A DNA stretch of 64,000 nt from Paenibacillus sp. FSL H7-0326 (GTDB lineage: Bacteria > Bacillota > Bacilli > Paenibacillales > Paenibacillaceae), in the NCBI RefSeq assembly GCF_001955535.1, contig NZ_MPVN01000001.1, positions 1,736,001 through 1,800,000 on the forward strand. The letters run 5' to 3'. The notes beneath the pieces were generated by a model, which did no database searches, was not told the origin of the DNA, and saw nothing but the letters and a program-made list of their open reading frames with translations. Positions 32,051 through 48,043 of the stretch are shown one piece after another. Made by a program: the position numbers and the translations under genes. How positions within the stretch are numbered: the first letter of the stretch is position 1; each line of letters begins with the position of its first letter.

Positions 32051-34618
32051 TTATTTCTGCTTCCATTCATCCAACAACAGCTCGGCATGATGAGTCAGGT
32101 TCAGCCTTGCCCGCTCGCTAATCTTGTCCTTGCCGCCTCGCTTGTCCAGCTGTGCCATATATTTTTCCAGGAAGGAAGATGCTTGCCTATAAGCTCCTTT
32201 ATTATAATGATGCACTGCTTGTTTTAGCGTATTGGCCAGCTGCTTCACCACATTTCCTGACAAATCTCCTTCTTCTACGTATTGATTATGCAATTGCTCA
32301 AGCACAGGCAGCAGCCCGGCAATGGATAGATTCGGAAGCTTCACCTGAGCAAAATCCATATCGGACGCAAAATAGTAACTTGTATACACCGGCTGATTAT
32401 AGCCCGTATTCTGCGTAGCTACACCTGCACGATATTGCGGATCATGCAGCAGGGTGTGCAGCTTGTGACTTGTCACTTCCGTATTGGAATAAATACGGAT
32501 GGCGCTGCTATCTGCCGTACGGACTAACATCTCTTCCCGCCAATCGCCAAACACATCCGCCACAAGGGACGGCGTGCCCTTCGTATGATTATTTGTACGG
32601 GTTCCTTCTGCAGTCAGCACCGTTCCTTTTTTCCAATCATCAATGGTCGGCGTATTCTCTAATGAGCCGTTTATGAGCTGGGTCGTCATATCCTTGGACC
32701 ATTTGATGCTCATGTTTGTACCCGGGGCCGTGTCACTAATCTTCTGACCCGCTGCTGTGTATAGTCCGACAGCCCATGTTTCAAGTCCCGGATGATCCGG
32801 ATCTACATCTCCAATCATGCCGCGTCCGGTATCACGTCCGGTATAAGCGCCGTAGATAACCTCACCTGTCCTCGCATCTCTAAGCGCATATCCATAGGGA
32901 GCATAGGCCCCGCCTTCATGCACCATATACACTTCAAGACCTTCGCGAGCTGGATCAATATTAGCAACATGCAGTGCATCTCCATGTCCCAAGCCTGCTA
33001 CAGCTCCAGGATTGGCGCTTTGCGGCGGCATCACAGCCGACGAATTCGACAAGACAGAACCATCATGATCAATGGTAGCCGAGCCATATACAATCTCCTG
33101 CTTGCCGTCACCATCTACATCCGCTACGCTGATTGAATGAGCTCCTTGCGTTGTAATCTGCCCGTACTCAGGATCTGTACCTGCTCTACCATGCGGACCA
33201 TCTCTGAACGGATTCGTCATCGGTGTCCATCCACTATCTACGTACCAATGTTCATTCAGATTGTTCCCGTCCCAGCTGTATGAGACCAGGGTTGTCCGGG
33301 TATAGTAGCCTCTCGCAAATACCGCATAGGGCTGTTCTCCGTCCAAATAAGCTACACCCGAGAGAAAGCGATCCACCCGGTTACCCGGCTCGATTCGGTT
33401 CATCGCGTAATCTCCCCAGCGCAGTCCATCATCATACCGACCCGGCTTGTAACGAATGGTCTGAAGTTCTGCTCCGCTCTCTCCTTCAAATACGCTCAAA
33501 TACTCGGGACCCGATAATATAAAACCTTCAAATTGACGCAATTTATTCCGATTGGCGTCCTTGGAAGGAGCAAACACATCCATAAAGTGATCAGCTAGAT
33601 GCCCCGCATCTTCCCGGGATAAAGGATAGTCATATGCTGGATCGATTCCGAAGGCTTCCTCGAGCGTTTGCGGCCAGCTTCCATCCTTAACCTCCTCATA
33701 TTCATGCCAGTTCATAAACATATCAACGATATGTTCATAGTAGCCCTCCGCGCCAAGTCTATAATCATCTTCATTAGAGTAGCCAGCGGTAAGGTCTTCC
33801 TTCAGCATCGTAATATACCGCTCAGATATGACATCACCTTGGGCATTATAACGAAGAGTCTTGGTACCCGGAGCAGTCTTGAACATAAGCTCGGCTTTAC
33901 CATCCCCATCGAAGTCATATACAAGGAACTGAGTATAATGCGCTCCCGAGCGGATATTGACACCCAGATCTATGCGATACAGCAGTCTGCCTTCATAAGT
34001 ATAAGCGTCAATATAAGTGTTGCCTGTATAGCCGACTTGGGAGACGTCCTTCGCATTACTCGGCTCCCATTTCACAAAATACTCGAGCCTGCCGTCCCCA
34101 TCCACGTCCCCAACACTCATGTCGTTAGCTGAATAAGTGTAAGCTTCACCCGCTGGTGTAACACCGTCCTTCGGCTTCTGGAGCGGAAGATCATAATAAG
34201 AATTCCCCCACGGAATAACGGCCTCACTCTGATCGACTTCTTTGCCTTTCACAACGGCAGATACGTAATAGCTGGAATCTGTCTCTCCCGCTGGATCAAG
34301 ATAATTCGTACTGTCACTCACTTGGGCAATCCTTTTGCCATCCTTGTATATATTGAAGTCCGTACCCGTGAGTCCCGTTTCATTACTGCCCGTTGCCTCG
34401 TTAGCGAGCAGTCTCCAGCTCAGAAATACGCCGTTATTCGCAGGCACTGCAATAAGCCCGCGATCCAGATATTCCATTTGTATACGCCGTTCCATGCTCG
34501 GTTTCCCCTTCCTGCTTACATCTTCAGCTGCGGATGCAATTCCTCCTGTAGTGATCAAGATCATACTCATTCCTGTCACAGCGATCTTTTTGAACAGTCC
34601 CATATTGAAATATGCCAT
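32051..34618 (-). CDS. Secreted rhamnogalacturonan lyase (PL11) with FIMAH domain
   Basis: An 855-residue exported enzyme that cleaves the rhamnose-galacturonate backbone of pectin by beta-elimination, YesW-like. A signal peptide (cleavage near A-S-A, about 30) is followed by a fibronectin-like/beta part (M-E-Y-L-D-R-G-L-I-A-V) and an eight-bladed propeller with calcium-binding D-V-D-G-D-G, D-F-D-G-D-G and D-V-D-G-D-G loops, as in PL11. The last 80 residues (Q-Y-V-E-E-G-D-L-S-G ... L-E-K-Y-M-A-Q-L) form a FIMAH helical module found on Gram-positive secreted enzymes. AGAGGTG precedes the ATG. It stands alone between a terminator and the divergent lpx operon. Confidence 0.94.
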   Translation of the reverse strand: MAYFNMGLFKKIAVTGMSMILITTGGIASAAEDVSRKGKPSMERRIQMEYLDRGLIAVPANNGVFLSWRLLANEATGSNETGLTGTDFNIYKDGKRIAQVSDSTNYLDPAGETDSSYYVSAVVKGKEVDQSEAVIPWGNSYYDLPLQKPKDGVTPAGEAYTYSANDMSVGDVDGDGRLEYFVKWEPSNAKDVSQVGYTGNTYIDAYTYEGRLLYRIDLGVNIRSGAHYTQFLVYDFDGDGKAELMFKTAPGTKTLRYNAQGDVISERYITMLKEDLTAGYSNEDDYRLGAEGYYEHIVDMFMNWHEYEEVKDGSWPQTLEEAFGIDPAYDYPLSREDAGHLADHFMDVFAPSKDANRNKLRQFEGFILSGPEYLSVFEGESGAELQTIRYKPGRYDDGLRWGDYAMNRIEPGNRVDRFLSGVAYLDGEQPYAVFARGYYTRTTLVSYSWDGNNLNEHWYVDSGWTPMTNPFRDGPHGRAGTDPEYGQITTQGAHSISVADVDGDGKQEIVYGSATIDHDGSVLSNSSAVMPPQSANPGAVAGLGHGDALHVANIDPAREGLEVYMVHEGGAYAPYGYALRDARTGEVIYGAYTGRDTGRGMIGDVDPDHPGLETWAVGLYTAAGQKISDTAPGTNMSIKWSKDMTTQLINGSLENTPTIDDWKKGTVLTAEGTRTNNHTKGTPSLVADVFGDWREEMLVRTADSSAIRIYSNTEVTSHKLHTLLHDPQYRAGVATQNTGYNQPVYTSYYFASDMDFAQVKLPNLSIAGLLPVLEQLHNQYVEEGDLSGNVVKQLANTLKQAVHHYNKGAYRQASSFLEKYMAQLDKRGGKDKISERARLNLTHHAELLLDEWKQK

Positions 34619-34772
34619 TTTAACACCTCTTCATCCTATAGTGATCAGCCACCCCCAAATTATAGACATGCCCTTCCCGGACCACCATTCAAATAACAGA
34701 GTTTATTGTTCAAAAATCAGTGTTTCTCTTATTTTCATATCTCTCAAATGTTGCAAAAAAGACATATAACAT

Positions 34773-34801
34773 TTACCAATATTCGATAATTAATCTATAA
34801 T
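34773..34801 (+). promoter_or_regulatory. SigA-like promoter of the lpxC-lpxD-lpxA operon
   Basis: TTACCA (34773-34778) and TATAAT (34796-34801) with a 17-bp spacer, 23 bp before the start codon. AAAGGAGG (34812-34819) is the ribosome binding site. Confidence 0.65.
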
Positions 34802-34824
34802 ATTCTAATAGAAAGGAGGATGTA

Positions 34825-35658
34825 ATGGAGTATCAGCGCACACTCGCCCAGCCTATTGAAATGAACAGCATTACCCTGCACAGCGGAATCCCGGCATCCA
34901 TGACCATACATCCTGCTCCAGCTGACAGTGGAATTCTCTTCAGAAGAGCTGATCTATCACCTGTAGAGATCATCAGCGCCGTGCCGCATCATGTATCATC
35001 GACGGATCGTTGTACACAGCTCACTAATGGACATCACTATTCCATTTCAATGGTCGAGCATGTTATGTCAGCCCTTCGCGGCATGGGAGTTGATAATGCC
35101 ATCATTGAAGCAGATGGTGAAGAGATCCCCGTCCTCGACGGCAGCTCTGTAATGATCAGCGACAGAATCGCCGAGACCGGACTCGTAGAGCAGCATGCCC
35201 TCAAGAAATACATGCGCTTAACCAAAGCCGTCCGGGTACAGATCGGCCGTTCGTATCTGGAAGCCATTCCTTCCGAAGAGATAAGCTATGAAATCCAGTT
35301 TACGAATGATCACGAGCTCCCCTTTTTGACGAATCAGATTGCTTACTTCAACCCAGCCATCCACGATTACCGAAGTGAAATTTCTCCGGCACGCACCTTC
35401 GGCTTTGAACAAGAAGTAAACCTTCTAAGAAGCAAAGGCCTAATCCAAGGCGCATCCATGGACAACGCAGTACTCATCGGAAACAGCCGAATTTTGTCGG
35501 ACTTGCGCTACCCGGATGAATTTGCCCGCCACAAGCTGCTCGATGTGATGGGTGATCTGGCACTGGCGCCTCCAGTTCTAGCCCAAGTTAGAGGCGTGCG
35601 AACTTCCCACCGTCTGAATACTCTTTTGGCACGGGAGATCATGAATAATCTACATTAA
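34825..35658 (+). CDS. lpxC: UDP-3-O-acyl-N-acetylglucosamine deacetylase (LpxC)
   Basis: A 277-residue zinc amidase that removes the acetyl group from UDP-3-O-acyl-GlcNAc, the committed step of lipid A synthesis. The general base and first zinc ligand are Glu78 and His79 in S-M-V-E-H-V-M-S-A-L, the same numbers as in E. coli. His236 and Asp240 in F-A-R-H-K-L-L-D-V-M-G-D-L are the other two ligands, Lys237 follows, and His262 in T-S-H-R-L-N is the likely general acid. A-R-T-F-G-F-E-Q-E-V with R-S-K-G-L is the substrate-binding insert. Length is close to Aquifex LpxC. It has a perfect ribosome binding site and leads a tight operon with lpxD and lpxA. Finding it in a Gram-positive setting is unexpected. 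Confidence 0.96.
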   Translation: MEYQRTLAQPIEMNSITLHSGIPASMTIHPAPADSGILFRRADLSPVEIISAVPHHVSSTDRCTQLTNGHHYSISMVEHVMSALRGMGVDNAIIEADGEEIPVLDGSSVMISDRIAETGLVEQHALKKYMRLTKAVRVQIGRSYLEAIPSEEISYEIQFTNDHELPFLTNQIAYFNPAIHDYRSEISPARTFGFEQEVNLLRSKGLIQGASMDNAVLIGNSRILSDLRYPDEFARHKLLDVMGDLALAPPVLAQVRGVRTSHRLNTLLAREIMNNLH

Positions 35659-35674
35659 TAAGGAGATAGCAAAG

Positions 35675-36706
35675 ATGGAGTACAAGCTTAAAGCCATTGC
35701 ACAGGAACTGAATGGAGAGTTAATCGGTGACGGAGAAGTGACCATACATAGCATCGCTTCCTTATCCAGTGCAGAGAGTGGACAAATCACTTATGTAACG
35801 GAGAAAAATATAAGCAAATTAACAGACTGCCGTGCCTCAGCCATCGTGGTTCCCGAGAAGCTTACCGATGCGCACCTGCCTGGTATTCGGGTAAAAAACC
35901 CCCGGCTGGCCTTTGTTCATGTTATGAACCTATTTCATCAGGCTACCAGAGCAAACGGTCTGATCTTTTCTGCGATGGTCGATTGTTCACTTCAAGCCGG
36001 GGAAAGTACACAGATTGATGAAGGTACCGTTGTCAAAGAGAACGTATCGATTGGTGAGGGAACCCTGATCTCCTCGAACTGTTTTATTGGCGAAAATGTT
36101 ACGATTGGAGATCATTGCTTCATTCATCCTCATGTCACGATTCTGAGAGATACCTGTATCGGGAGCAACGTCATTATTCATTCCGGTGCCGTTATTGGCT
36201 CTGATGGATTCGGCTATGAGTGGGATGGTCAGCAGCATGTAAAAATTCCTCATGCCGGCAATGTTGTCATTCATGATGATGTCGAGATCGGTGCCAATAC
36301 AACGATAGACCGTGGAACAATCGACCCCACTATTATCGAAAGGGGCACGAAGATCGACAATCTGGTCCAGATTGCTCACAACGTACACATCGGCAAACAC
36401 TGTATTATCGCAGGTACAACTGCAATTGCAGGTTCAGCTTCCATCGGGGATCATGTCGTGCTGGCCGGTGGATCTGCAGTCGTTGGTCACCTCACCATCG
36501 GGGCTCACTCCACGATTTTGGGCAAGTCAAACATTACAAAGGACTTACCTGCACATTCGATCATTTCGGGCTACTATGCCCGTCCCCACCATGAACAACT
36601 GAGAAAGCAAGCCGCTATTGAACGTCTTCCCCATACATTGAAGAAATTCAGCACTCGAATAGACTCCTTAGAGAAGAGCATAAAGAAGCTGACGAAGGAG
36701 GAATAA
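35675..36706 (+). CDS. lpxD: UDP-3-O-acylglucosamine N-acyltransferase (LpxD)
   Basis: A 343-residue trimeric acyltransferase that transfers a 3-hydroxyacyl chain from acyl carrier protein to the 2-amine exposed by LpxC. The N-terminal uridine-binding domain (1-100, with I-T-Y-V-T-E-K-N) leads into a left-handed beta-helix of hexapeptide repeats (about 105-320) and a C-terminal helix. G-S-D-G-F-G-Y (175-181), G-A-N-T-T-I-D-R-G (206-214) and V-Q-I-A-H-N-V with the catalytic His235 (His239 in E. coli) are diagnostic. Length matches E. coli LpxD (341). It starts 16 bp after lpxC with AAGGAG upstream. Confidence 0.96.
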   Translation: MEYKLKAIAQELNGELIGDGEVTIHSIASLSSAESGQITYVTEKNISKLTDCRASAIVVPEKLTDAHLPGIRVKNPRLAFVHVMNLFHQATRANGLIFSAMVDCSLQAGESTQIDEGTVVKENVSIGEGTLISSNCFIGENVTIGDHCFIHPHVTILRDTCIGSNVIIHSGAVIGSDGFGYEWDGQQHVKIPHAGNVVIHDDVEIGANTTIDRGTIDPTIIERGTKIDNLVQIAHNVHIGKHCIIAGTTAIAGSASIGDHVVLAGGSAVVGHLTIGAHSTILGKSNITKDLPAHSIISGYYARPHHEQLRKQAAIERLPHTLKKFSTRIDSLEKSIKKLTKEE

Positions 36707-36709
36707 ACC

Positions 36710-37513
36710 ATGGCTCTCCCTACTACAACGGTTCATCCTACTGCGATCATTCATCCGACCGCTGTTATTGGAGATCAAGTCGAGATCGGCCCTTACTGCA
36801 TCATCGAGGAACACGTAAGGATAGGAAATGGATGTACCATTGAAAGCCATGTGCGAATCGGTTCAAATACCACACTGGGTGAATACAATCATGTATACCA
36901 GGGCGCCATTATCGGCTCCCCTCCCCAGGATCTTAAATATAACGGTGAGGAAACGCAGCTGATCATCGGGGATTATAATACGATTCGAGAGTATGCAACG
37001 ATTGCCAAAGGAACAGATTCCGGCGGCGGAGTCACACGGGTAGGGAATCATAATTTTATAATGAACTATGTTCATGTTGCACATGATGTAGCCTTGGGGA
37101 ATCATATCGTCATTTCCAACAGTGTTCAGATTGCAGGTCATGTGGAGATCGAGGACGAGGTCACGCTTGGCGGCTTGGTTGGTGTTCATCAACATTGCAA
37201 GATTGGCGCATATTCCATGATTGGCGTCGGGAGCTGTGTCACTCAGGATATCGTCCCCTATTCACTCGCGAGCGGCGATCATGCCAGGATCTACGGCCTC
37301 AACCTCATCGGCTTAAGACGCAAAGGCATGTCCGGGGACGACATTCGAATGATCAAGCAAATTCATTCCCTCCTGTTCCGCAAGAATCTGACGCTGGCCC
37401 TTGCACAGGATGCCATAGAGCATTTGCCTCAAAGCGTGTTTAAAGAACACACCATTGCGTTCTTGAAGAAATCCAACAGAGGCATCGCAAGAATAGGAAC
37501 GCGTCCTATGTAA
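36710..37513 (+). CDS. lpxA: UDP-N-acetylglucosamine O-acyltransferase (LpxA)
   Basis: A 267-residue trimeric hexapeptide-repeat acyltransferase that moves a 3-hydroxyacyl chain from acyl carrier protein to the 3-OH of UDP-GlcNAc. His122, catalytic His125 (Y-V-H-V-A-H-D), His144 (A-G-H-V) and His160 (G-V-H-Q) coincide with E. coli numbering by hand alignment, and G-S-P-P-Q-D-L-K-Y near 69-77 is the family insert. The C-terminal helices contain L-R-R-K-G-M-S. At position 173, the acyl-chain ruler (Gly in E. coli), this protein has Val, which may favour a shorter chain. The ATG is 3 bp after lpxD, with AAGGAGG inside the end of lpxD. Confidence 0.96.
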   Translation: MALPTTTVHPTAIIHPTAVIGDQVEIGPYCIIEEHVRIGNGCTIESHVRIGSNTTLGEYNHVYQGAIIGSPPQDLKYNGEETQLIIGDYNTIREYATIAKGTDSGGGVTRVGNHNFIMNYVHVAHDVALGNHIVISNSVQIAGHVEIEDEVTLGGLVGVHQHCKIGAYSMIGVGSCVTQDIVPYSLASGDHARIYGLNLIGLRRKGMSGDDIRMIKQIHSLLFRKNLTLALAQDAIEHLPQSVFKEHTIAFLKKSNRGIARIGTRPM

Positions 37514-37531: not shown

Positions 37532-37568
37532 ACAGAAAAAACGCCGATGTTGTCGGCGTTTTTTCTGT
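37532..37568. terminator. Bidirectional terminator after lpxA
   Basis: ACAGAAAAAACGCCGA pairs perfectly with TCGGCGTTTTTTCTGT around a 5-nt loop. It serves lpxA and the convergent GH95 gene. Confidence 0.95.
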
Positions 37569-37585: not shown

Positions 37586-39967
37586 CTATCCCTGAATGCT
37601 GAGGATATAAGCTCCTCCAGCTTGTACAGGGAAGACCAGAACTCCGTTCTCCTTGACCTCTGCCTGTACTTCTTCGCCGGCTTTATTGGTTATCCTAATG
37701 ACGGCAGCTCTCGTCCGAACCCCACACACTCCATCATGATCGGAACGAATCTCAGCTGCAGACAGCTGTCCGCCTTCCCATGCAAGATCAACCTCATAGC
37801 CGCCCCTAGCACGAAGTCCACGGATTGAACCTTTCTCCCAAGCCTGCGGCAGAGCAGGAAGAAGTTCTACATAGCCTTGATGTGATTGAAGCAGCAGCTC
37901 AATGATGCCTGAGGTTGCCGCAAAGTTACCGTCGATTTGGAATGGTGGATGTGCGTCGAACAAGTTCGGGTACACCCCGCCGCTCTCGTATCTTTCGGAG
38001 CCGTCACGAACGAGCTGAAGCAGATTGGACACAAGTCGGTGCGCCCGATCTCCATCCTGGAATCGTGCCCACAGACCAACCTTCCAGCCAAGGCTCCAGC
38101 CTGTCCCACCGTCACCGCGTCTCTCCAGTGATACGCGTGCAGCCTGAAGAAGCTCCGGTGCAAGCCCCTCGGTAATTTGGCGTCCAGGATATACCCCAAA
38201 TAGATGGGATACATGTCTATGGTGAACATCTTCATCCTCATAATCATGGAGCCACTCCTGCAGCTGACCATATTTGCCGATTCTCAGCGGCGGCAGCTGA
38301 TCTCTGGCTGCAAGGACCTCTTGCGCAAATGCAGCATCTTCTCCCAAGACTTCGCTCACCTCAGCAATATTGGTGAACAAATCATACATAAGAGCAAGAT
38401 CCATGGTCGCTGCGGTTGTCACCCCATACAGCTCACCGTCGATTCTGTAGCGATGCTCCGGCGAGGTAGAAGGTGCGGTCACGAGCATCCCGTTCTCATC
38501 TGGAATGAGCCAATCCAGGCAGAAGAGCGCGGCGTCCTTCATGATCGGATACGCTGTATTTCTTAGGAAATCCTCATCCTTCGTAAACACATAATGCTCA
38601 TACAAGTGCTGGCAGAGCCATACCCCGCCCATTTGCCACAGCGCCCACACCGGATCGCCATGCCCGAAGTTTCCAACAGGAGCTGTATGTCCCCACAGAT
38701 CGGTATTGTGGGAAGCCGTCCAGCCTCTTGTGCCATAATGAATCTCTGCCGTCTTCTTACCGTTGACGGACAGACGCTGAATCAGATCAATCAACGGCTC
38801 ATGGCATTCGGACAGATTGGCCGTCTCCGCCGGCCAGTAGTTCATCTCTGCATTAATATTCAGTGTATAATTACTGCTCCATGGCGCTCTCGTTTCATGG
38901 TTCCAAATGCCCTGAAGGTTCGCAGGCTGACTTCCTGGTCTGGAGCTGGATATCATCAGGTAACGACCGTATTGGAAGAGAAGATTCACCAGATAAGGAT
39001 CCTTCCCTCCAAATTCTACAATGCGCTCATCTGTCGGCAGATCTGCTGGTGCAAGCCCGGGTCCGAGATCCAGCTCCACCCGTTGATACAGTCTTTGGTA
39101 ATCTTCTACATGGCGTGCGCGGAGCTCTGTATAATTGTACTTCAGTGCGTTATCCAGATGCTCCTTCGCACAGGCCGATTCATCCTTGCCGTCTTTACCC
39201 GGTGAACGATCATAACCATTAAAGCTGGTTGCCATACTCAAGTATATAGTAGCGCTGTCTGCATCCACTATACGAATACCTGATGCATCCACCTTGGATG
39301 TCCCGCCTTCATGGATTACTGCAATTCTTCCTTCAAAACGCATGGCATCCGTTTCTCCAGATTTACCATATCGGATCGGATTATCCGCAGGATAATAGCT
39401 GGGGTGCACTACTTCTGGTGCATATCCAGATAGAACGGCGTGATCTCCATCGGAAGACTGCTCATGTCGAAGTAAGCTGCTAAAGCTTGCCTTAAACCCT
39501 AATCTTCCTGGGATGCTGGACTCCATCCGCATGGCAATAATTTGATCTGGATAGGAGGCGAATACTTCGCGGGTATACACCGTCTCCCCGATTTGGAACT
39601 GAGTCGTAGCCACGCCTTCATTCAGCTCCAATGTGCGTTTGTAATTCCAGCCGATATCTCCGTGATCAAAGCTGATGTTCAGATCACCGAAGGGGAGATA
39701 CGACTGAGTATAAGCACCCATCATTTTCTTGCTTAGCTTGTCCGCTTCTGCATACTTGCCTTCCTTGAGCAACCGGCGTACCTCAGGCAATACTTCAAGA
39801 GACTCCGGATTATTCGTTTCCTTCGGTGGACCAGACCATAACGTGTCTTCATTCAGCTGCAGTCTCTCCAGCTCCATCCGCCCAAATACCATGGCGCCCA
39901 TTCTACCATTTCCGATGGGAAGAGCTTCCGTCCATTCCTTGGCCGGACGATTGTACGTTAAGAACAT
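37586..39967 (-). CDS. GH95 family alpha-L-fucosidase / alpha-L-galactosidase
   Basis: A 793-residue glycoside hydrolase with no signal peptide, hence cytosolic. The N-terminal domain has [11 protein letters not shown] and [11 protein letters not shown]; the catalytic alpha/alpha barrel has N-I-N-A-E-M-N-Y-W with the two Asn that activate water, S-T-S-P-E with the general acid Glu, and Q-I-D-G-N-F with the third Asp, as in characterised GH95 enzymes. Family members release alpha-1,2-fucose or L-galactose from plant polymers. The ATG at 39967 follows TTGGAGG. A LacI-type palindrome lies about 80 bp upstream. The neighbouring pectin lyase fits use on plant cell wall. Confidence 0.93.
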
Positions 39968-40048
39968 GTGCTTTCCTCCAAGCTTGTATTTTTTTATACC
40001 GAAATAGGTGTGCAAGGGGTGCCATCATCCTACTTCCTTATAATTGAC

Positions 40049-46794: not shown

Positions 46795-47057
46795 ATGTTT
46801 AACGTCTCCTTTCAGCTGCAGCTATACATAAGACGGACGACGGTTTATTTTTATAGCACGTTTTATAAAAAATGTTTAATTGAGTCCTTTTTCAAATTCT
46901 ATATTAATTATACCGAAGCCGGATATAGCTCATCATTCCAAATCTTGTGTATCCCTATTGAACAATTCGACAAAATGCAGTACCATCATGGGGTGAGCTT
47001 CGTTTTTTAACTGTTCTTTCATAATGAGGTCTCACTTATACATTACAATTAAGAACG
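46795..47057. other. Intergenic region between the sigma operon and the ZTP riboswitch
   Basis: AT-rich; must contain the ECF promoter (minus strand) and the folD promoter (plus strand). I see no gene with a ribosome binding site. Confidence 0.55.
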
Positions 47058-47128
47058 TCACATGTAACTGGCGTACACGGTGAACCGTGAGGGAGCATGT
47101 GATTAGATATAGCCGTACGCCTGGGCAG
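47058..47128 (+). promoter_or_regulatory. ZTP (ZMP) riboswitch, pfl motif
   Basis: The leader shows the pfl RNA layout: P1 TCACATG (47058-47064) with CATGTGA (47096-47102), an A-C-U-G-G-C-G core, an ACGG/CCGT hairpin, G-G-G-A-G-C, then after a linker CCG-TA-CGCC-UGGGCA, the conserved second domain that forms the pseudoknot with GGCG. ZTP riboswitches sense the purine intermediate ZMP/ZTP when 10-formyl-THF is short and turn on folate one-carbon genes such as folD, which follows here. Confidence 0.93.
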
Positions 47129-47163
47129 AGGTAAGGAAACTTAGGTTTCCTTGCCTCTTTTTT
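47127..47163 (+). terminator. Riboswitch expression-platform terminator
   Basis: GAGGTAAGGAAAC pairs with GTTTCCTTGCCTC, with six or more T after it. The 5' arm touches the end of the aptamer's UGGGCAGAG, so ligand binding would compete with terminator formation. Confidence 0.92.
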
Positions 47164-47182
47164 ACTTGGAAAGGGCGATGTG

Positions 47183-48043
47183 ATGATGAGCGACAACACA
47201 CTGATTCTGAATGGTCAAACGGTAGCAGATTACATGAGAGAAGAAACGGGAGCAAAGGTGAAAGAACTGAAGGAGCGGGGAATCCAGCCGTGTCTGGCTA
47301 CCATCCTGGTTGGAGATGACCCTTCTTCGGCAACTTACGTACGTATGAAAGGGAATGCTTGTGCACGAATCGGGGTGGAGTCGATCAAGGTGGTGCTTCC
47401 TGCCGAGACAACGACAGAGGAACTGATTCAAGAAATCAACAAGCTGAATCAAGACCCTTCCGTTCACGGCATTCTGCTGCAGCATCCGGTCCCGCATCAT
47501 ATTGATGAAAGAGCATGCTTTGACACGATCAGCATTGAAAAAGATGTAGACGGAGTAACGACGCTTGGCTATGCACTGAACGCGTTTGGCGAAGCGGATT
47601 ATCCATCCTGCACACCGCAGGCCATTATCCGCATTCTTGACTTCTATAACATTCCAATGGAGGGCAAGCACGCCGTAGTCATCGGCCGCAGTCCGATCCT
47701 TGGCAAACCGGTATCGGCGATGCTGCTGAATCGCAATGCAACGGTGACGACCTGCCACTCCAGAACGGTAAATATTGAAGCGATTGTGAAACAGGCAGAC
47801 ATTGTGGTCGCTGCCGTAGGTAAACCGAATTTTGTACAAGGAGATTGGATCAAGTCAGGAGCCGTTGTCGTTGATGCAGGCTACAACAAAGGGAACATCG
47901 GTGATGTCGACTATGATGCCTGCTTGCCGCACTCCTCTGCCATCACACCTGTACCTGGCGGTGTCGGCCCCGTTACCATCGCGACCTTGATTGAGCATAC
48001 GGTAAAATCGGCGTACAAGTCATTACTGAAGCAAGAGCAGTAA
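47183..48043 (+). CDS. folD: Methylenetetrahydrofolate dehydrogenase / cyclohydrolase (FolD)
   Basis: A 286-residue bifunctional enzyme interconverting 5,10-methylene-THF and 10-formyl-THF. The N-terminal Y-V-R-M-K near 52-56 holds the catalytic Lys, D-V-D-G-V-T near 120 is the substrate loop, I-G-R-S-P-I-L-G-K-P near 166-175 is the NADP site, and P-V-P-G-G-V-G-P-V-T near 258 is the second FolD signature. GGAAAGGG is the ribosome binding site; ATG 47183 or 47186 may be used. Controlled by the ZTP riboswitch upstream. Confidence 0.96.
   Translation: MMSDNTLILNGQTVADYMREETGAKVKELKERGIQPCLATILVGDDPSSATYVRMKGNACARIGVESIKVVLPAETTTEELIQEINKLNQDPSVHGILLQHPVPHHIDERACFDTISIEKDVDGVTTLGYALNAFGEADYPSCTPQAIIRILDFYNIPMEGKHAVVIGRSPILGKPVSAMLLNRNATVTTCHSRTVNIEAIVKQADIVVAAVGKPNFVQGDWIKSGAVVVDAGYNKGNIGDVDYDACLPHSSAITPVPGGVGPVTIATLIEHTVKSAYKSLLKQEQ

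What the first reader, a model, noticed from the sequence alone, without database searches (positions are those of the whole stretch)
34825..37513. An lpxC-lpxD-lpxA operon (lipid A early pathway) in a Gram-positive, Paenibacillus-like chromosome
Seen: three full-length adjacent genes whose products carry the diagnostic motifs of LpxC, LpxD and LpxA. Known: these enzymes start lipid A synthesis in outer-membrane bacteria, and monoderm Bacillota lack lipid A. All flanking genes (sporulation-type kinase, SigY-like operon, LplABC-type importer, PL11-FIMAH) are of Bacillota type. I know of no description of a function for such an operon in this group. Inference: the cell makes an acylated UDP-glucosamine for a purpose other than classical LPS, for example a glycolipid, a spore-envelope lipid, or a signal or antibiotic precursor.
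Basis: partly seen in the sequence, partly recalled or inferred. Interest (0 to 1): 0.95.

Follow-up and report, generated by a model that had tools for sequence, protein, structure and literature searches.

The report
Traded half lipid-A pathway in Paenibacillus
Some Paenibacillus bacteria, in which the enzymes to finish endotoxin were not found, carry three genes, swapped as one block between related species, that are predicted to make the first half of endotoxin's lipid anchor, likely as the start of an unknown membrane glycolipid.

Summary
Window 34825-37513 is a three-gene lpxC-lpxD-lpxA operon above curated cut-offs, with catalytic residues kept. It is no assembly artefact: named relatives carry it between the same genes. 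Its existence in this group is already in print (lpxACD in Paenibacillus crassostreae, PMC11448272, function open). New here: (1) in 295 sampled Paenibacillaceae genomes full-length LpxC and over-cut-off LpxD occur in the same 10; LpxA over cut-off in those and 4 more. (2) LpxB, LpxH, LpxI, KdtA and Omp85 give no match over cut-off in 12 genomes: 10 full carriers and 2 with lpxA remnants. (3) The cassette sits at three or more places, C-D-A, and at one place it was exchanged between species as a unit with steps in identity at its ends; empty and eroded versions of that site exist. (4) It is under purifying selection, weaker than its neighbours. Best reading, activity and fate inferred: it makes UDP-2,3-diacylglucosamine for an unknown membrane glycolipid. 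Frequent loss, erosion to lpxA and an unknown next enzyme count against a firm claim.

The parts
34772..34801 (+). promoter-like site upstream of lpxC (TTTACC/TTACCA, 17-18 bases, TATAAT)
   Evidence: not above chance by itself; the TATAAT box is in all 7 upstream regions printed
34812..34819 (+). ribosome-binding site AAAGGAGG
   Evidence: read from the sequence printed
34825..35658 (+). lpxC, UDP-3-O-acyl-GlcNAc deacetylase
35675..36706 (+). lpxD, UDP-3-O-acylglucosamine N-acyltransferase
36710..37513 (+). lpxA, UDP-GlcNAc 3-O-acyltransferase
37532..37568 (.). perfect 16-base inverted repeat with 5-base loop, likely terminator shared by the convergent lpxA and GH95 genes
   Evidence: not listed by the terminator scan
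32051..34618 (-). left neighbour: PL11 rhamnogalacturonan lyase with FIMAH domain
37586..40015 (-). right neighbour: GH95 glycoside hydrolase (ORF; start may be at 39967)

Best explanation
The operon encodes LpxC, LpxD and LpxA homologues with their recalled catalytic residues in place, predicted to turn UDP-GlcNAc and two 3-hydroxyacyl-ACP molecules into UDP-2,3-diacylglucosamine, which is likely the activated precursor of a still unknown glycolipid of the cell membrane. Predicted steps, from family knowledge: LpxA would put the first acyl chain on the 3-OH, LpxC would remove the acetyl group and commit the flux, LpxD would add the N-linked chain. The known next enzymes (LpxH or LpxI, LpxB, KdtA) were not found, nor Omp85, so lipid A, LPS and an outer membrane by the known route are unlikely. 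A host enzyme, unidentified, would use the product as a sugar-lipid donor or cleave it to a lipid X-like amphiphile. V173 at LpxA's acyl-ruler position would favour chains shorter than the C14 of E. coli (recalled work). Shown: gene identity, residues, missing later genes, co-occurrence of lpxC and lpxD, purifying selection, exchange as a block. Inferred: activity, product, fate.
For: Scores over curated cut-offs; residues in place in 29 LpxC rows (E78, H79 in 29 of 29; H238, D242, D246, H265 in the 28 rows that reach them; T191 in 28 of 29), LpxA H125 in 25 of 25, LpxD H239 in 22 of 22 (E. coli numbers). LpxC and LpxD in the same 10 of 295 genomes, each with LpxA. No match over cut-off for LpxB, LpxI, LpxH, KdtA, Omp85 in 12 genomes, with controls ringing (the LpxI control rings in 1 of 14 genomes only). 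Order C-D-A at three places. dN/dS 0.07-0.37. Exchange as a unit.
Against: No downstream enzyme is known, and no product was measured. The cassette is often missing or eroded: 4 of 14 LpxA genomes lack full LpxC and LpxD, 20 of 30 loci at one site are empty. dN/dS of the cassette is mostly higher than that of its neighbours. LpxD H276 of E. coli is N in 11 and S in 1 of 22 rows, though H in the window; LpxA H160 is L in 3 of 25 rows. G224 has a DegT gene behind lpxA, which points to sugar chemistry. LpxK, LptD, LpxG-type hydrolases and lone glycosyltransferases were not searched.
Confidence: 0.5

Rival explanations
1. The cassette serves surface-glycan chemistry rather than a lipid: LpxA and LpxD would acylate an amino sugar, possibly a 3-amino-3-deoxy sugar made by a DegT-type aminotransferase, and the acylated sugar nucleotide would go into a polysaccharide or glycoprotein.
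For: In G224 a DegT aminotransferase gene follows lpxA on the same strand; its best solved match is QdtB. LpxA-like proteins of three other Paenibacillaceae genomes sit next to DegT and BKACE genes, and their LpxA-like proteins are the nearest rows outside the LpxA clade. Lone lpxA is kept with dN/dS 0.133 and 0.209.
Against: The DegT gene was seen in 1 of the 11 full loci whose gene lists I read (most neighbours not Pfam-tested) and is split over two frames. LpxC, which makes sense on an N-acetyl sugar, is kept with LpxD in 10 of 10. No GnnA search was made.
Confidence: 0.2
2. A passenger: an imported module with little or no function in these cells, spread by linkage or chance and decaying.
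For: Patchy presence, empty sites, lpxA-only remnants and the lpxC::lpxD remnant of G290; higher dN/dS than neighbours.
Against: Ten genomes with all three ORFs open, purifying selection, window-clade inheritance together with the flanks, one clade for each protein that implies an old presence, and recent exchange of intact cassettes.
Confidence: 0.2
3. The cell is a hidden diderm that makes LPS by unrecognised later enzymes.
For: The first three steps are present; LpxG shows that later enzymes can be replaced (PMC4807358, passages).
Against: No match over cut-off for LpxB, LpxH, LpxI, KdtA or Omp85 in 12 genomes. P. crassostreae, a carrier, is called Gram-positive in PMC11448272.
Confidence: 0.03
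4. The segment is a chimeric assembly or contamination.
For: None found.
Against: Same operon and neighbours in named records TCA20 and 453mf and in G224; G+C of the operon 0.47-0.49 like its surroundings; 2.2 Mb contig.
Confidence: 0.005

Closest known systems
Partial lpxACD operon of Paenibacillus crassostreae and lone lpxA of Cohnella abietis (PMC11448272)
   Different: The paper reports one species with the operon and no function; here many species, several sites, exchange between species, and partial losses.
Raetz lipid A pathway of diderm bacteria, including diderm Bacillota
   Same: First three enzymes with catalytic residues.
   Different: The later enzymes were not found. In 14 of 20 diderm Bacillota loci read, fabZ lies between lpxC and lpxA, and in none of the 20 was an LpxD match found between lpxC and lpxA; here lpxD lies there.
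Four-enzyme pathway (LpxA, LpxC, LpxD, LpxB) of Dictyoglomi and Cyanobacteria (PMC3087551, passages)
   Same: A short pathway lacking the last steps.
   Different: Here LpxB too was not found, nor Omp85.
GnnA/GnnB route to UDP-GlcNAc3N (PMC5644692, passages)
   Same: A sugar aminotransferase gene beside lpxA in G224; that GnnB is of DegT type is recalled.
   Different: Gene broken, seen once, GnnA not searched.

Membership tests
LpxC, LpxD and LpxA enzyme families | score over the curated cut-off of the family model | tested here: met
LpxC, LpxD and LpxA enzyme families | zinc and catalytic residues | tested here: met
   for the window's proteins (roles recalled); departures in relatives: LpxD H276 to N or S, LpxA H160 to L, H122 to Q
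LpxC, LpxD and LpxA enzyme families | activity on UDP-GlcNAc-derived substrates | not testable with these tools
   needs enzyme assays
Complete lipid A (Raetz) pathway | LpxH or LpxI, LpxB, KdtA in the genome | tested here: not met
   no match over cut-off in 12 of 12 genomes; LpxG type and LpxK not searched
LPS outer membrane (diderm) cell | Omp85/BamA | tested here: not met
   0 of 12; LptD not searched
Paenibacillaceae lpxCDA cassette as in P. crassostreae | one clade for each protein and the order C-D-A | tested here: met
   clades of 31, 26 and 28 rows for LpxC, LpxD, LpxA with SH-aLRT 100, 99, 92 (quick trees, P0021 moved out of the LpxC group); order
UDP-GlcNAc3N (GnnA/GnnB) variant | gnnA and gnnB with the lpx genes | tested here: inconclusive
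   a broken DegT gene in G224; gnnA not searched

The most novel reading that the evidence does not exclude
Paenibacilli run a half-length lipid A pathway as a tradeable accessory trait: a three-gene cassette builds UDP-2,3-diacylglucosamine in a one-membrane cell, a host enzyme turns it into a new class of diacyl-glucosamine membrane glycolipid, and species swap whole cassette alleles at a fixed chromosomal site, as they would a surface or defence trait.
Probability: 0.3. Interest if true: 0.85.

Novelty: new variant of a known kind. Interest (0 to 1): 0.6.

Why it matters
Lipid A enzymes are taken as markers of an outer membrane, and LpxC as a Gram-negative drug target. A selected and horizontally exchanged LpxC-D-A set in spore-forming monoderms would show that the lipid A precursor has a use outside LPS. 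It also makes that use testable, because closely related species with full, partial and empty sites exist as natural mutants.

Tried and rejected
Rejected: chimera; complete LPS. Spore-specific expression has no support but is not excluded. Carriage on phages or plasmids of Bacillota: one viral-contig scan for close relatives confirmed none; phage and plasmid matches are all under 60% identity, and no Bacillota is among the rows shown or the ten commonest genera, but not every record was listed. The ABC pair beside the site-2 cassette is on the opposite strand and is the conserved neighbour of empty sites too, so I do not take it as a partner.

Donor: unresolved. The LpxC clade has a sister of support 38; the LpxD sister (P0259) has no name; the rows nearest to the LpxA clade are the below-cut-off LpxA-like proteins. 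Reference rows were mostly the query's own best hits, so the sampling leans. P0021 was first counted among the Paenibacillus LpxC rows (2 changes) and then moved out because it groups with diderm Bacillota. The rpoB loci were fetched but no tree was made from them.

Slips: one search flagged three coordinates (lpxC of L015 and the kinase gene of L018 and L019) that begin inside the gene; the frame is kept. At W-L014 lpxC the dS could not be computed (saturated). In one search LpxI was not a query. One search has a chance-level LpxC hit in L113 (E 0.97).

Full report
WHAT IS THERE. Three ORFs at the stated coordinates, same strand, gaps of 16 and 3 bases, score over the curated cut-offs for LpxC, LpxD and LpxA and match solved LpxC, LpxD and LpxA chains along nearly their whole length. 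The residues that I recall as zinc-binding or catalytic are in place. AAAGGAGG precedes lpxC, and all 7 upstream regions printed carry TATAAT; the promoter scan by itself is near chance (9 sites, shuffles 5.3, sd 2.0). A perfect 16-base inverted repeat lies between lpxA and the convergent GH95 gene. The neighbours are a rhamnogalacturonan lyase with FIMAH domain and a GH95 enzyme. The operon thus looks like a closed three-gene unit.

NOT AN ARTEFACT. The window lies in a 2.2 Mb contig of a 99.97% complete genome of 6.03 Mb. Paenibacillus sp. TCA20 and 453mf have LpxC at 94% and 87% identity and the operon between the same two neighbours, as has G224. A 96% identical LpxC is named P. urinalis.

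PRIOR ART. PMC11448272 (section 3 read whole) found lpxACD in P. crassostreae and a lone lpxA in Cohnella abietis among 3,855 Bacillota genomes, inferred one transfer from Terrabacteria, and suggested novel roles (virulence, temperature, stress) without a test. Six text searches listed no other paper that I recognised as describing such genes in this group; only 20, 25, 15, 2, 1 and 10 rows were shown, of 128, 40, 23, 2, 1 and 14. Two listed papers with Paenibacillus and LpxC in title or abstract were looked into by passages and do not bear on it. The library is open-licence PMC only; the supplements of PMC11448272 were not available.

DISTRIBUTION. In 295 sampled Paenibacillaceae genomes PF03331 matches in 11, one of them (G290) a fragment. 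LpxD is over its cut-off in 10, the same 10 as full LpxC. LpxA is over its cut-off in 14: those 10 and G290, G006, G229, G234. Below cut-off, three LpxA-like proteins (G196, G153, G141) lie next to DegT and BKACE genes, and two LpxD-like proteins (G260, G105) next to BKACE genes. In 398 sampled genomes of the phylum LpxC is in 85. Of 20 such loci read, 14 have fabZ between lpxC and lpxA, and none has an LpxD match there.

WHAT WAS NOT FOUND. In 12 genomes (10 full carriers, G290 and G006) LpxB, LpxI, LpxH, KdtA and Omp85 have no match over cut-off. Controls ring over cut-off in 4, 1, 1, 3 and 7 of 14 genomes. Weak LpxB matches below cut-off in 4 of 12 are of a kind also seen in B. subtilis and Lactococcus. 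LptD, LpxK, LpxG-type hydrolases and GnnA were not searched.

THE CASSETTE MOVES. Place 1, between PL11 and GH95: window, L013, L014, L015. Place 2, between a histidine kinase and an ABC pair: L017-L022, with remnants in L023 and L112. Lone lpxA of L113 and L114 is at a further place. At place 2, G090 against G123 has flanking windows 62-87% identical and cassette windows 90-98%, the step lying at the start of lpxC and the end of lpxA. Synonymous divergence agrees: dS 1.65 and 1.41 for two flanking genes against 0.16, 0.06 and 0.17 for lpxC, lpxD and lpxA; G090 against G154 gives 1.58 and 0.64 against 0.19, 0.30 and 0.25. Other pairs show no such step: G090 against G254, and G123 against G274, have cassette and flanks about alike. 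All 75 genus genomes were searched for the ABC gene. Of the 30 loci fetched, 20 have the kinase and no lpx match, 8 hold lpxD and lpxA in the part fetched, 1 has the lpxC and lpxD remnants with lpxA, 1 lpxA alone. On a tree of that ABC gene (32 rows) presence against absence needs 4 changes, at least 3 by starred branches. The cassette is inserted in the terminator region behind the kinase, with a similar short stretch (AACGCTG, AACGCCG) on its two sides (my reading of the print). In the window clade, dS of cassette and flanks is alike for window against L013 (0.35-0.58 against 0.40-0.53), which fits joint inheritance; against L015 the cassette is somewhat higher (0.16-0.30 against 0.09-0.17). 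Against G224 the cassette proteins are 60-66% and the neighbours 85-86% identical, which fits replacement or faster change.

SELECTION AND EROSION. dN/dS of cassette genes is 0.07-0.37 over pairs with usable dS; of neighbours 0.00-0.15. Lone lpxA has 0.133 (G229/G234) and 0.209 (G290/G006). G290 keeps residues 2-41 of LpxC next to 255-341 of LpxD and a whole LpxA; no remnant was found for G006, G229 and G234. In LpxD, H276 of E. coli is N or S in 12 of 22 rows; in LpxA, H160 is L in 3 of 25, the G229/G234 kind.

ONE CLADE. Paenibacillus rows form one clade in each quick tree: LpxC 31 rows (SH-aLRT 100), LpxD 26 (99), LpxA 28 (92). This fits one origin in the group, as PMC11448272 inferred from two species. 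The donor is not resolved here.

MECHANISM. By family knowledge LpxA acylates UDP-GlcNAc at O-3 (unfavourable equilibrium), LpxC deacetylates and commits, LpxD N-acylates. The joint presence of C and D with A fits a flux to UDP-2,3-diacylglucosamine. No step is shown biochemically here. LpxA position 173, the recalled acyl ruler, is V in 4, L in 1, A in 14 and G in 6 of 25 rows, so chain length likely differs between clades. The next enzyme is unknown. PMC4807358 (two passages) reports that over-making LpxG gives toxic build-up of lipid X, so a free product would need a sink. One Paenibacillus species description lists an aminoglycolipid among its polar lipids (PMC9867441, passages); whether that strain has lpx genes was not tested.

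RIVALS AND WEIGHT. A sugar-acylation role gains weight from the broken DegT gene behind lpxA in G224 and from the LpxA-like/DegT operons in other genera. A passenger role gains weight from erosion and patchiness. I hold the glycolipid-precursor reading at 0.5.

Noticed in passing
L115:7456-11850, L116:7347-11396, L117:7498-11885: In three Paenibacillaceae genomes of other genera (G196, G153, G141) an operon BKACE - DegT aminotransferase - LpxA-like (just below the LpxA cut-off) - protein of 414-551 aa (the L115 one without Pfam match): looks like a sugar N-acylation module.
   Followed up: partly
L118:9026-10857 and L119:9012-10836: LpxD-like protein (about 190 bits, below cut-off) next to a BKACE gene among sugar-nucleotide genes in G260 and G105.
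   Followed up: partly
L014:6454-7564: DegT-type aminotransferase directly behind lpxA in G224, split over two reading frames; 43% identical to the DegT of L115.
   Followed up: partly
L113:8412-9230, L114:9388-10197: Lone lpxA in G229 and G234, between GH67 and sigma-factor-like genes, several kilobases from where the window's operon would lie; H160L in both.
   Followed up: partly
window 47054-48043: ZTP riboswitch directly upstream of a FolD-type gene.
   Followed up: no
plasmids collection: A near-identical lpxC sits on large plasmids of Klebsiella, Raoultella, Citrobacter and Escherichia (37% identical to the query), not part of this finding.
   Followed up: no
L074 and L076: Two Bacillota loci with lpxC and no lpxA, lpxD, fabZ or lpxB match nearby, like the lpxC2 region named in PMC11448272.
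   Followed up: no
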